A stretch of DNA of 64,000 nucleotides from Xanthostigma xanthostigma (lineage: Eukaryota > Arthropoda > Insecta > Raphidioptera > Raphidiidae): the NCBI GenBank assembly GCA_963575645.1, contig OY754466.1, positions 2,830,001 through 2,894,000 on the forward strand. The letters run 5' to 3'. This document shows, in pieces, positions 8,391 to 61,564 of the stretch (within the stretch, counting starts at the first letter, position 1; the number at the start of each line of letters is the position of its first letter). The notes under the pieces are model-generated. The model was not told the origin of the DNA. It did not search any database and was given only the letters and a program-made list of their open reading frames with translations. A program made the position numbers and the translations under genes.

Positions 8391-8592
8391 TCAATAAATA
8401 AAATTATCGACCAATTTTTCAGACAATATATTAACAAAATATAATTACTACATTAACGTTTCGATCCCGATTTGGATCTTCTTCAGAATGGATCTAAAAA
8501 TATAAAAAAAAATCGGGATCGAAACGTTAATGTATTAATTATATTTTTTTAATATATTGTCTGAAAAATTGGTCGATAATTTTATTTATTGA
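8391..8592. repeat. Palindromic repeat H, copy 1
   Basis: The arms begin with CAATAAATAAAATTATCGAC and its inverse. The centre carries AACGTTTCGATCCCGATTTG facing its partial inverse. Sister copies are at 19581-19767 and 61286-61564. Each has a hammerhead-like core, annotated separately. Confidence 0.75.
8457..8486 (-). ncRNA. Hammerhead-ribozyme-like core in repeat H
   Basis: Minus strand: CTGAAGA, one extra A, stem II GATCC/GGATC with an A-rich loop, then GAAA and CGT. This is the CUGANGA...GAAA conserved core of hammerhead ribozymes, with a bulged A before stem II. Such minimal hammerheads are known in Penelope-like and other retroelements. Activity is not shown by sequence. Confidence 0.4.
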
Positions 8593-8995
8593 AGAGTTCT
8601 AATCAGACGTTAATCAAAGATTTGAATCAACGATTATTCCCAACCTCACCAGCAAATAACACTTTTCGATACAAACATTGTATTTTATTTACTTTGTACG
8701 CAGTATGTAATAAAGTAAGTAATGTTATTCGATTTTGTTTTCCCAGAAGGAGTTGCATGTTGTAGGTCAGGTCAGAAAACATTTCCACAAAATTTTACAG
8801 TCACGACAACAGACCTATCTGCGTATTAAATTACCGACCGTCGTTTTACACGGCGACTTTAACAATAATTGTGATTGCCTACTGCTGAAGCACACCATGG
8901 CGCGTAATAATAATGATATTATTGGTATACTAGTGTGGCCTGTGCGAATTATTCGCACTAAATAAGTATAATAATTATCACTTTACAAAATTATT

Positions 8996-9172
8996 AACTT
9001 CCCGCTTTAAAAAAAAAAAAAAAAAAATTTTTTTTTTTCAAAAATCGGGAAGTTATTGGTTTCACCCCGATTTTCGAAAATCGAGTTTTCGCCAGATCTC
9101 GACGTTTTGGGGTCCTAGGAAGCTATTGAAACTATTTTGGCGATGATGTCCGTAGGGCTGTATGTATGGATG

Positions 9173-9208
<36 letters not shown>

Positions 9209-10114
9209 AACCTTTTATATCTTTTGAACGGAGTGTCCGACTGAAACGTGGTTTGCGGCATCTGACGTGATCTTGGTGAACTTAGACTTCCTGAAAATTT
9301 GAAACGATTCGGCCCAAAAAATTTTGAGAAATCTTAAAAAAACAAGTTTCAAAAATTTTTAAAAATTTGTTTTTGTAAAAAATTTTCTAAACTACTAAAC
9401 CGATTAATTCCAAAAACTAATCAGCTCTTCTCCTTAACAAACTGCGTCGATTTCCGCAAACCGCATCAAAATCGGTTCATTTGTTCACGAGAAACCGTGA
9501 ACGAAAAAATCGTAAAAAAGTGTTTTTTTAAAATGACTCTTAAAATTGTTATCAGATTGATTTTTTTGTAATAAATTACTTTCTTAAGCTAAAAAAACTG
9601 CGTCGATCGCCGCAAACCATATCAAAATTGGTTCATTTGTTCATGAGATAACGTGAACGAAAAATTAGGAAAAAAGTAATTTTTTAAAATTACTCGTAAA
9701 ATTCTTATCAAATCGATTTTTTTGTAATAATTTACTTTCTTAGGTTAAAAAAACTGCGTCGATTGCAGCAAACCGCATCAAAATCGGCTCATTTGTTCAC
9801 GAGATATCGTGAACGAAAAATTTTTAAAAAGTGTTTTTTTTTAAATTTCTCGTAAAATTCCTATGAGATCGATTTTTCTGTATAAAATTACTTTTTAAGG
9901 TTAAAAAATTGCGTCGACTGCCGCAAATCGCATCAAAATCGCTTCATTTGTTCATGAGATATCGTGAACGAAAATTTCGTAACAAAGTGTTTTTTTTTTG
10001 AGCTCGAAGAGCTAAAAAATAAACTTCTTGCTATATTTGACATATTTTTGAGCGTTTTGAACTCGAAAATAGCGGGAAGTTACAGGGATGGCCTGCAGGG
10101 TCAAACTACTTTTC
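8996..10114. mobile_element. 1,119-bp insertion in Helitron C with 8-bp target duplication
   Basis: AAATTATT precedes (8988-8995) and follows (10115-10122) the insert, and the uninterrupted Helitron copies have this site once. Inside are AACTTCCCGC near the left edge and its inverse GCGGGAAGTT near 10075, a GT-rich microsatellite at 9171-9206, and four 156-bp tandem units. The superfamily is not assigned; an 8-bp duplication fits hAT, but the ends do not form a clear hAT TIR. Confidence 0.7.
9441..10010. repeat. Tandem array, about 156-bp period, four units
   Basis: The marker ACTGCGTCGAT followed by CGCAAACC.CATCAAAATCG begins at 9441, 9597, 9753 and 9908. Each unit continues to TTCATTTGTTCACGAGA-type sequence. 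The units are diverged but in register. Confidence 0.85.
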
Positions 10115-10749
10115 AAATTATTTTTTAAATATGATTGCAGGTATTCAATTCGTTTCTAATTTTGCACACTGCTTATAACGTTCTTCTTTTTGTTGTATTA
10201 CAATATGAATCTCAGATGACAGATCGAAGAAATATTTTACTAAAATTGTAATATAGAGACGCAAGTAGCAAAAGCGTTGAGCTAAGCCGTCAGATGACAT
10301 CATGCAGCATTGCTGTGACGTTGTTCAGCGTTGCTCGCTGATTCAAAATTAAAGCCGTCAGATGGCAGTGTGCAGTATTGTGTCTGTTGTATTACAATAT
10401 GAAGGTCAGATGACAGATCGAAGTGTTGACGTTGTTTCAAAATTAAAGATGGCAGACGTTGTTCAGCGTTGCTGTATTTTAATTAATTTACAAAAACAAA
10501 AGCAATAATAAATTTTTTAGTTGTCGATGTCAGTAGAGCAAGCAATTATCTGTAAAATGATATATAATTTATGTGGAGAAAGTGTGAGATTTTTTCTAAA
10601 AAGGGAGGCAAACCTTAGCGTATTAATATATATGATTTATAAAGGCGACTCGTTCGGGCGTTCTGCAAACCAGTCAACAGATTTTAAAATGAAACTTTTT
10701 AGTTTGCTGCAGGAACACATAATTTTGTAGGTATTAGGTTGTACATTCA

Positions 10750-59556: not shown

Positions 59557-60074
59557 TACAGGGTGTCCCACGACATGACTGCCATAGCCTGGGACTGTGT
59601 TGCTGGGGTGATTTCAAGTCAAAAATGTTTAATGAACATATACCCGGAACGCTATCCTAACTGAGCTAGAAGCATTTGAAATTTTAGATAAGTAGTAGGA
59701 ATTCCCTACTAATTTAAAAACCATTTAAAAAGAAATTGCTTTATTGAATTAGTTGCTCAAAATGTCCACCCAGTTGCTGTATACATAGTCTAGCTCTTCT
59801 TAGAATTGAAGTGGTAGCTCTGCGAAGAGTCTCAGGATCAGCACGAATAAATACTAATGGTGATTCACAGCCACCTGGTCTTTTTAATAATAACAAAACC
59901 AACAGACGAACCTAATACCTGCATTAGTGGGCTTACAGCTTATTTAAAATTTCAAATGCTTCTAGCTCAGTTAGGATAGCGTTCCGGGTATATGTTCATT
60001 AGACATTTTTGACTTGAAATCACCCCAGCAACACAGTCCCAGGCTATGGCAGTCATGTCGTGGGACATCCTGTA
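59557..60074. mobile_element. TACAGGGTGTCCCA-ended fold-back with transposase tail
   Basis: TACAGGGTGTCCCACGACAT and inverse ATGTCGTGGGACATCCTGTA. Arms of about 100 bp include GAACATATACCCGGAACGCT. A transposase tail lies in the middle. Confidence 0.88.
59741..59881 (-). pseudogene. DDE transposase C-terminal tail, copy 3
   Basis: Minus strand: GGCESPLVFIRADPETLRRA, then TTSILRRARLCIQQLGGHFE and QLIQ before TAA (59741-59743). The ending is the 'R.ARLCI...GGHFEHLL' type of insect Tc1/IS630-like transposases. Upstream catalytic parts are deleted. This is the longest of three tails in the window. Confidence 0.65.
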
Positions 60075-60713
60075 TATCACAGATCTCTCTGTACTTCCTG
60101 GATAGAAAATTCTTAGGAACTCCAAACCCTCCTGCAGTGAAATGGAAAGATTCACCAGCGAGGTCCTACAAAATTGTACTATGTTTTTATACTAACTTCC
60201 GAAGCATCAATATTATTTAAAAAAAAGTGTGTGTGTGTCAGCTGTAACGCACGACTGGAGTTAACTCCTTAGATACGCTGTGTAATATATTCCATCTCAT
60301 TCTTTCGCACGTTAAATCCTACAGATATATATGTTTGTCTCTTTTGTATTCAATCTCATTCTTTCGCACGTTAAATCCTACAGATATATATGTTTGTCTA
60401 TTTTGAAGCGAACGAGCGTAACGGCACACTTGAAGCGGTGGAGCGTAACGCCTCGCCAATTGATTTCACTACTCATAAAATTTCCGTACCGGGCCTTATA
60501 ACTCAAAATCGTTTCTTAAGGAGTAAACTCCAAAAGCTTGAAGTACTTCTATAAGCATCTTTTTCCAATGTCATTCAAATAAAGGAGATATGATATTTGC
60601 TATAATTTACATTCAAATTGTAAATCATATGGTCAATATATTGGTTGAAATCAAACGCACTAATATAATCGGTTGTCGAGCGTCTATAATCCACAATTTC
60701 TCTCTGTTTCCAG
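60075..60713. other. Spacer with a 59-bp tandem duplication, possible intron
   Basis: The block TATTCCATCTCATTCTTTCG through TGTTTGTCTCTTTTG at 60288 repeats at 60347 with two differences. If the exon at 60714 is real, this is intron sequence that ends in a strong acceptor. Confidence 0.6.
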
Positions 60714-60770
60714 TTCAGCTAAAAGATTGATTCCAACAAGCTCCAGACAAAGTTCCGTTCAATTACCGCC
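60714..60770 (+). CDS. Candidate 57-nt internal exon of an unidentified host gene
   Basis: A polypyrimidine run plus CAG (TTTCTCTCTGTTTCCAG, ending 60713) is a strong 3' splice site, and GTAAGT starts at 60771, a consensus 5' splice site. The 57 nt between have one open frame: S-A-K-R-L-I-P-T-S-S-R-Q-S-S-V-Q-L-P, with one base before and two after. It is phase-2 at both ends, so it can be included or skipped without shifting frame. The other two frames have stops. The neighbourhood is GC-richer than the window. The product is unknown; the 87-codon minus-strand run over the same area is the alternative reading. Confidence 0.45.
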
Positions 60771-61285
60771 GTAAGTGATACTGAGGTGCAACGATGCGGT
60801 CGCGTCGCATAAGTACCGGGGGTGGCTTTATCGGTTCCCGAGGCAGACAAGTCCCAGAAGCACGTCGGGCCGGCGGAGACGCTGGTCAATATTGTCACGG
60901 GATTTCTACGTAGCTGACGACGACGGACGCCGCGACGTTTACTAAGACGAATGGTCAACCGTGATGGATGGTTTGGGATCACTCGAATGCAACAGAATTC
61001 CGCTAGGGTTGGACTGAAGTACAGAGAACTCTCGTTGTAATCAAAATCCAGGAAATGGCACGGTAAAAACCTCTAAAATTAAACAGCGTCGTTCCTGTCT
61101 TGAATTGTTATTTTTGATTGGAAACATTCAGAACCGAGCGCTTTATGTTTTATAAAGTATCTGATTTTATAACTATATAATCTGCTTTGTAAATTATATT
61201 ATCTACTTTAAGACTTGTCATATACTGTATAGTCAAAATGACAAAATATATTCAAATCTTTGATTAACGTCTGATTAGAACTCTT
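60771..61285. other. GC-richer stretch, possible intron start
   Basis: 60780-60990 is GC-rich (GGACGCCGCGACGTTTAC and similar). A minus-strand open run of 87 codons (60719-60982), Arg-rich at its start, covers it. I see no motif and prefer the plus-strand exon reading, without certainty. Confidence 0.35.
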
Positions 61286-61564
61286 CAATAAATAAAATTA
61301 TCGACCAATTTTTCAGACAATATATTAACAAAAAATATCAATAATACATTAACGTTTCGATCCGGATTTGGATCTTCTTCAGAACGGATCTAAAAATATA
61401 AAAAAAAATAATTAATAATTAGTTTCTATTTATTTTTAATGTAATTCGCGAAAGATTTTTTTAATATAGAAAGAAGATCCAAATCCGGATCGAAACGTTA
61501 ATGTATTATTGATATTTTTTGTTAATATATTGTCTGAAAAATTGGTCGATAACTTTATTTATTG
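61286..61564. repeat. Palindromic repeat H, copy 3
   Basis: CAATAAATAAAATTATCGAC and inverse, the best-preserved copy, with both arms carrying AACGTTTCGATCCGGATTTG/inverse and AGAAGATCC. Confidence 0.8.
61353..61382 (-). ncRNA. Hammerhead-like core, copy 3
   Basis: Minus strand CTGAAGAAGATCC, AAATCC, GGATC, GAAACG. Same arrangement as at 8457-8486. The right arm (plus strand, from 61472) has the stem and GAAA but lacks the CTGA. Confidence 0.4.

What the first reader, a model, noticed from the sequence alone, without database searches (positions are those of the whole stretch)
8457..61382. Hammerhead-ribozyme-like cores in three palindromic repeats, with a compensatory stem change
Repeat H at 8.4, 19.6 and 61.3 kb carries CTGAAGA...stem II...GAAA. 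In the middle copy stem II changes GATCC/GGATC to GGTCC/GGACC, so both sides change together. That is what selection or past selection on an RNA stem would leave. The core has one extra A before stem II and the middle copy has GGAA, so some or all copies may be inactive. Hammerheads are known in Penelope-like retroelements; finding them in a short fold-back repeat is less usual.
Basis: partly seen in the sequence, partly recalled or inferred. Interest (0 to 1): 0.8.

Follow-up and report, generated by a model that had tools for sequence, protein, structure and literature searches.

The report
Hammerhead motifs in Penelope retroelement repeats
The three palindromic repeats are short insertion products of an abundant Penelope-type jumping gene, which carries a minimal hammerhead ribozyme motif as this group is known to do; the two-sided stem change that drew attention is about as frequent as chance predicts.

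Summary
The motif is real, on the minus strand, in all three repeats. Repeat H is the end piece (pLTR) of a Penelope-like element (PLE), inserted as a head-to-head inverted pair, usually with a 32-bp tail on one side and target duplications of 12-16 bp. In the same genome a tandem PLE (L092) has this pLTR, hammerhead and tail on both sides of an 835-codon open frame related to an RT + GIY-YIG ORF. A covariance model built only from other PLE motifs ranks exactly the three sites first in the window (E 6e-5, 6.9e-4, 0.015). The 'extra A' is shared: all 30 stem-checked motif hits in GIY-YIG loci have one extra base there. The 'compensatory' change is not evidence of selection: of the first 100 listed genomic motifs, 3 have G-C with 3.06 expected under independence, and unpaired A-C (15) is as common as G-U (14). 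Covariation exists between PLE families. Rfam misses these motifs, but also misses the five PLE control loci. The 8.4 and 61.3 kb cores could be active; the middle one (GGAA) is probably dead. Cleavage cannot be tested here. Verdict: new member of a known kind, with unusually clear insertion anatomy.

The parts
8378..8392 (.). left target-site duplication AATCAACGATTATTC of the 8.4-kb copy
8393..8624 (+). 8.4-kb copy of repeat H: inverted pLTR arm, pLTR arm, 32-bp tail (tail on the right); the plus arm keeps only the 3' half of the hammerhead
8443..8494 (-). hammerhead motif with stem I, core, stem II (model R1 hit, E = 6e-5); core CTGAAGA..GAAA 8459-8486
8593..8624 (+). 32-bp tail; in the full element (L092) the same sequence runs into the start of the open frame
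8625..8639 (.). right target-site duplication of the 8.4-kb copy
19581..19800 (+). 19.6-kb copy of repeat H, more diverged; tail 19769-19800; target duplication imperfect (8 bp exact)
19638..19689 (-). hammerhead motif of the middle copy (model R1 hit, E = 0.015); core 19654-19681 has GGAA in place of GAAA
61241..61252 (.). left target-site duplication ACAAAATATATT of the 61.3-kb copy
61253..61565 (-). 61.3-kb copy of repeat H: tail 61253-61284 on the left, long arm on the minus strand, short arm on the plus strand whose hammerhead is cut off in its 5' half
61339..61390 (-). hammerhead motif (model R1 hit, E = 6.9e-4); core 61355-61382; folds alone into stems I and II
61566..61577 (.). right target-site duplication of the 61.3-kb copy

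Best explanation
Repeat H is the pLTR of a Penelope-like retroelement, inserted as a head-to-head inverted pair without the ORF. Shown: homology to the pLTR of a full PLE in the same genome; tail; target duplications; both arms of one copy mostly carrying the same variants; scattered inner junctions; and a hammerhead at the same kind of place as in other PLE families of this genome. Inferred mechanism: the PLE protein nicks both strands of an AT-rich target. Each nick primes reverse transcription on element RNA at one of two internal start sites 32 nt apart, which set the outer ends with and without tail. Both cDNAs run toward the RNA 5' end, stop within the pLTR, and are joined in the middle. 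The hammerhead (minimal type I, stem III reduced to the palindrome ACGU, one extra base before stem II) would cut element RNA just after GAAACGUU, possibly helped by the PLE protein or by pairing of two RNAs. It is inherited from the full element, and nothing here shows that it is needed for forming H.
For: L092 is a tandem PLE: hammerhead 217-248, pLTR end 297-318, tail 319-350, open frame 329-2833 (835 codons), then hammerhead 3023, end 3103, tail 3125. Its frame is 31% identical over 500 aa (E = 2e-55) to an RT + GIY-YIG ORF. The window arms match this pLTR at 76.5-96.8%. Longer H-type copies L078 and L071 keep the end of the ORF beside the pLTR; that peptide matches the GIY-YIG ORF of L040 (E = 3e-7) and gave 150 scored genome matches of 93-100% identity out of 2728 candidates. 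Of 30 copies examined, 24 have an exact shared flank of 12-16 bp and 28 were scored with the 32-bp tail. Arm segments are identical in 19 of 28 copies with both arms readable, against 10.3% of between-copy pairs. 5449 exact matches to the H hammerhead pattern in the genome, 0 for the reversed pattern. Model R1 from other PLE motifs: the three sites are the top three of the window. Stem I and stem II pair better within than across families (2 of 5040 permutations each reach the observed sum, the identity included).
Against: No experiment. Pfam alone recognises neither the 835-codon frame nor the 75-aa piece, and that piece had no convincing match in the L052 and L041 ORFs. Only 9 of 16 clean junctions are unshared, so some fold-backs may have moved as units or formed at hot spots. 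Stem I of H is weak (4 of 5 positions in the 61.3-kb type, 3 of 5 in L092); the full elements' own hammerheads score below the H copies with R1 (18.6 bits, E = 0.066); Rfam finds no hammerhead. Inner ends rarely fall at the predicted cut (1 of 32 within 3 nt). I chose the cut register by eye in two families (L041, L043-60), which favours the stem I result.
Confidence: 0.9

Rival explanations
1. H is a fold-back DNA transposon or MITE that happens to hold a hammerhead-like string; the hairpin is a DNA terminal inverted repeat.
For: Short, high copy number, long inverted arms.
Against: Tail on one outer end only, and shared flanks that vary in length; pLTR, hammerhead and tail flank an RT-type frame in L092; inner junctions scattered.
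Confidence: 0.03
2. The motif is PLE-derived, but the ribozyme is dead weight in H: the copies decay neutrally and none cleaves.
For: The second stem II pair is at independence, with A-C mismatches in 15 of 100; the middle copy has GGAA; in the anole PLE, insertion in vitro does not need cleavage and the RNA does not cut without protein (PMC11167929, main text).
Against: Core and stems are kept across PLE families of the same genome whose flanks differ, so the full elements are probably under selection for it.
Confidence: 0.45
3. The two-sided stem change was made by selection on the stem, or by templated copying of one hairpin strand from the other.
For: The two arms of one copy share variants, so copying between similar sequences is plausible.
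Against: G-C is no more frequent than independent single changes predict: 3 of 100 against 3.06; C accompanies G in 126 of 649 genome-wide and A in 15 of 83 of the first 100 listed.
Confidence: 0.07

Closest known systems
Canonical Penelope/Poseidon-type PLEs (Pen2a of Adineta vaga, PMC3846280, passages seen; PAc of Anolis, PMC11167929, main-text section read)
   Same: ORF between pLTRs, an inverted pLTR head-to-head, a tail of about 30 bp at one pLTR end that runs into the ORF start, short target duplications, a hammerhead near the pLTR-ORF junction, AT-rich targets.
   Different: Here the abundant form is pLTR-only (5449 exact motif matches); the H motif has AAG in place of ATG and its frame starts further downstream; target duplications are mostly 12-16 bp against the 8-10 bp in the passages seen.
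Minimal hammerheads of PLEs (Cervera and de la Pena 2014; known to me only as cited, the paper is not held)
   Same: Minimal versions lacking helix III, in the pLTRs (PMC6155905, passages).
   Different: Whether the extra base before stem II was described there could not be checked.
Retrozymes of animals (PMC7229834, passages seen)
   Same: Short non-autonomous repeats with type I hammerheads.
   Different: Retrozymes are tandem repeats that give circular RNA; H is head-to-head, and no circle was shown or looked for here.

Membership tests
Penelope-like element | ORF with RT and GIY-YIG endonuclease linked to the repeat | tested here: met
   L092 frame between two pLTRs, 31% over 500 aa to an RT + GIY-YIG ORF; Pfam alone gave no RT or GIY-YIG hit on it
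Penelope-like element | pLTRs in tandem and/or head-to-head inverted arrangement with a tail of about 30 bp at one end | tested here: met
   layout compared with PMC3846280 passages
Penelope-like element | short target-site duplications | tested here: met
   24 of 30 copies with exact shared flanks of 12-16 bp; the other six gave 4-10 bp, two of them by misplaced ends in the script
Penelope-like element | RT phylogenetically in the PLE/telomerase clade | not tested
   no tree was made
Hammerhead ribozyme (PLE minimal type I) | invariant core CUGANGA and GAAA | tested here: met
   2 of the 3 window copies; the middle copy has GGAA and fails
Hammerhead ribozyme (PLE minimal type I) | stem II with covariation | tested here: met
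   covariation between PLE families; none within H at pair 2
Hammerhead ribozyme (PLE minimal type I) | stem I closing across the cut site | tested here: inconclusive
   the 61.3-kb motif folds with stem I; the 8.4-kb and 19.6-kb motifs do not as minimum-energy folds, nor do L037 and L040
Hammerhead ribozyme (textbook form) | stem II directly after A9 | tested here: not met
Hammerhead ribozyme (Rfam models) | match to an Rfam hammerhead family | tested here: not met
   no match in the window at gathering threshold or E up to 10; five PLE loci and three H loci also gave none
Hammerhead ribozyme | self-cleavage | not testable with these tools
   needs in vitro transcription

The most novel reading that the evidence does not exclude
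The pLTR-only fold-backs are a mobile form in their own right. Reverse transcription that starts at the 5'-proximal start site of any PLE transcript, on both nicked target strands at once, yields a head-to-head hammerhead-bearing pair; thousands of these now can give hammerhead RNA whichever strand is read, and the near-palindromic stem III lets two such RNAs act as a dimer, also in trans on the full element's RNA.
Probability: 0.12. Interest if true: 0.75.

Novelty: new member of a known kind. Interest (0 to 1): 0.4.

Why it matters
How PLEs integrate, and what their hammerheads are for, is still open. This family offers a very large number of short insertions with both ends, target duplications and inner junctions readable. 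It could be used to test whether both target strands are primed from the same RNA and whether cDNAs ever end at the ribozyme cut. It also shows PLE hammerheads that Rfam's models do not report, and that a two-sided stem change in three copies is weak evidence of selection.

Tried and rejected
Rfam at gathering threshold and at E up to 10 found no hammerhead in the window; the same search gave none for five PLE loci either, so the miss was not taken as refutation. Compensatory selection at stem II pair 2 was rejected on counts. Independent formation of every fold-back was only partly kept: 9 of 16 clean junctions are unshared within 4 nt, and 14 of 30 copies without a clean junction were dropped from that count. 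cDNA ends at the ribozyme cut were looked for: 1 of 32 inner ends within 3 nt. A first comparison of arm spacers gave 16 of 28 identical with edge errors of the pattern; one search replaced it, and there the distance of L022 is inflated by a matching artefact. In one search the script misplaced the ends of L015 (scored as without tail, though one search shows one) and L022, and shared flanks may include a base or two of the element. Copies L001-L029 came from a search with a palindromic query that scored 40 of 1227 candidates, so copies with both arms are over-represented. Loci L061-L090 were fetched by the hammerhead pattern; they are part of the 83 motifs but carry no claim of conservation. 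The genome-wide count of motifs with C on the 3' side and a survey of CTGANGATG hammerheads did not complete, so the A row rests on the first 100 listed sites, counted by eye. My notebook says 21 of 30 loci; the recount is 22.
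Full report
Observation. The three sites carry, on the minus strand, TTCTGAAGAAG + GATCC (GGTCC in the middle copy) + loop + GGATC (GGACC) + GAAACG (GGAACG in the middle copy). The pattern TTCTGAAGAAGRTCC with up to two mismatches occurs three times in the window, against a mean of 0.18 in shuffles.

What the repeat is. The window lies in an unnamed 623-Mb genome. A search with the 61.3-kb copy returned 30 loci (40 of 1227 candidates were scored), of which 28 are distinct places. With the other two window copies added, 30 copies were examined: 28 were scored with a 32-bp tail on one outer end, and 24 have exactly shared flanks of 12-16 bp; the other six gave 4-10 bp. 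Mapped to a pLTR reference, outer ends fall mostly near two places about 32 nt apart, while inner ends scatter widely. In 28 copies with both arms readable, the segment between hammerhead and outer end is identical in 19, while 10.3% of pairs from different copies are identical. The two arms of one insertion therefore mostly come from one template or from each other.

Link to a Penelope-like element. Two longer copies (L078, L071) contain, beside the pLTR, the end of an ORF. The 75-aa piece from L078 has no Pfam match and no convincing match in two other PLE ORFs, but matches the GIY-YIG ORF of L040 (E = 3e-7). It finds 150 scored relatives among 2728 candidates, 93-100% identical, with open frames of up to 837 codons and one of 1249. 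L092 shows the full order: hammerhead, pLTR end, tail running into an 835-codon frame, hammerhead, pLTR end, tail. The frame is 31% identical over 500 aa to the L041 ORF, which has RT and GIY-YIG domains in Pfam; Pfam alone found neither in the L092 frame. The arms of the three window copies match the L092 pLTR at 76.5-96.8%. This is the layout published for PLEs: pLTRs, an adjacent inverted pLTR, a 31-bp tail, short target duplications (PMC3846280, passages). In the anole PLE the tail corresponds to the sequence between two internal reverse-transcription start sites, and the enzyme cuts and extends both target strands (PMC11167929, main-text section).

The hammerhead. In 30 loci found by the GIY-YIG domain alone, a scan for CTGANGA, 0 or 1 extra base, a stem of at least 4 bp and GAAA gave 30 hits in 22 loci; 8 loci had none. 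Several loci overlap, and 16 of the 22 belong to one uniform family. Twenty dinucleotide shuffles of the same 30 loci gave 0 in nineteen and 2 in one; the reversed sequences gave 0. A covariance model from seven motifs of five sequence types, none of them H, ranks the three claimed sites first, second and third in the window: E = 6e-5, 6.9e-4 and 0.015, next 0.18. In 28 H loci plus L091 and L092 it gave 50 hits at E up to 1, H copies at up to 29.9 bits, L091 and L092 only 18.6 bits (E = 0.066), and a few weak hits outside H. Permuting strands between seven types, the stem I and the stem II sums were reached in 2 of 5040 permutations each, the identity included; two of the seven are H types, and I set the cut register by eye in two families. 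The 61.3-kb motif folds alone into stems I and II; the 8.4-kb and 19.6-kb motifs, and L037 and L040, do not form stem I as minimum-energy folds.

The compensatory change. The pattern allowing four combinations at stem II pair 2 has 5449 matches (2749 + 2700) and none for the reversed control. In the first 100 listed, some of them two arms of one insertion, I counted A-T 68, G-T 14, A-C 15, G-C 3; independence predicts 3.06 G-C (Fisher p = 1). Genome-wide, 126 of 649 motifs with G have C, 19.4%, against 15 of 83 with A in the first 100, 18.1%. The genome-wide A row was not obtained. So the change in the middle copy is what independent single changes give, and copies with an unpaired A-C are common. 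In a separate set of 83 motifs within six substitutions the counts were A-T 73, G-T 4, A-C 3, G-C 2 and one C-C.

Mechanism. Shown: anatomy, homology, shared variants in both arms. Inferred: both nicked target strands prime cDNA on PLE RNA at two internal start sites, run into the pLTR and are joined there. Of 16 copies with a clean junction, 9 junctions are unshared within 4 nt, so repeated hot spots or movement of ready-made fold-backs is not excluded. Of 32 inner ends in these copies, 1 lies within 3 nt of the predicted ribozyme cut. [quoted passage not shown]

Verdict. Repeat H is an ordinary product of an abundant PLE, carrying a PLE-type minimal hammerhead. Activity of the 8.4-kb and 61.3-kb motifs is open; the middle one is probably dead because a core A is changed (the core requirement is recalled, not from a call).

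Noticed in passing
61592-61668: tRNA-Ala-like gene (anticodon CGC) directly beside the 61.3-kb copy; the sequence that follows could be a tRNA-derived SINE (by eye).
   Followed up: no
6606-8051 (-) and 25917-27584 (+): Long open frames that look like reverse transcriptases of non-LTR retrotransposons, by eye (YADD in each place); not searched.
   Followed up: no
12795-13681, 45612-46110, 58622-59412: Tandem arrays with units of 27 bp within about 220 bp, 37 bp, and about 163 bp.
   Followed up: no
10115-10456, 37557-37959, 39510-39912, 42099-42501, 58219-58631: Five copies of a dispersed repeat, 95-98% alike between opposite strands.
   Followed up: no
L043-L060: A second, very uniform PLE family with nearly identical hammerheads CTGAAGATGAGAGC..GCTCTCGAAATGTACAT; several loci hold the motif on both strands.
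   Followed up: partly
L061, L062, L081 and others: H subfamilies with GTC in place of GTT at the presumed cut and different flanks around the same core.
   Followed up: no
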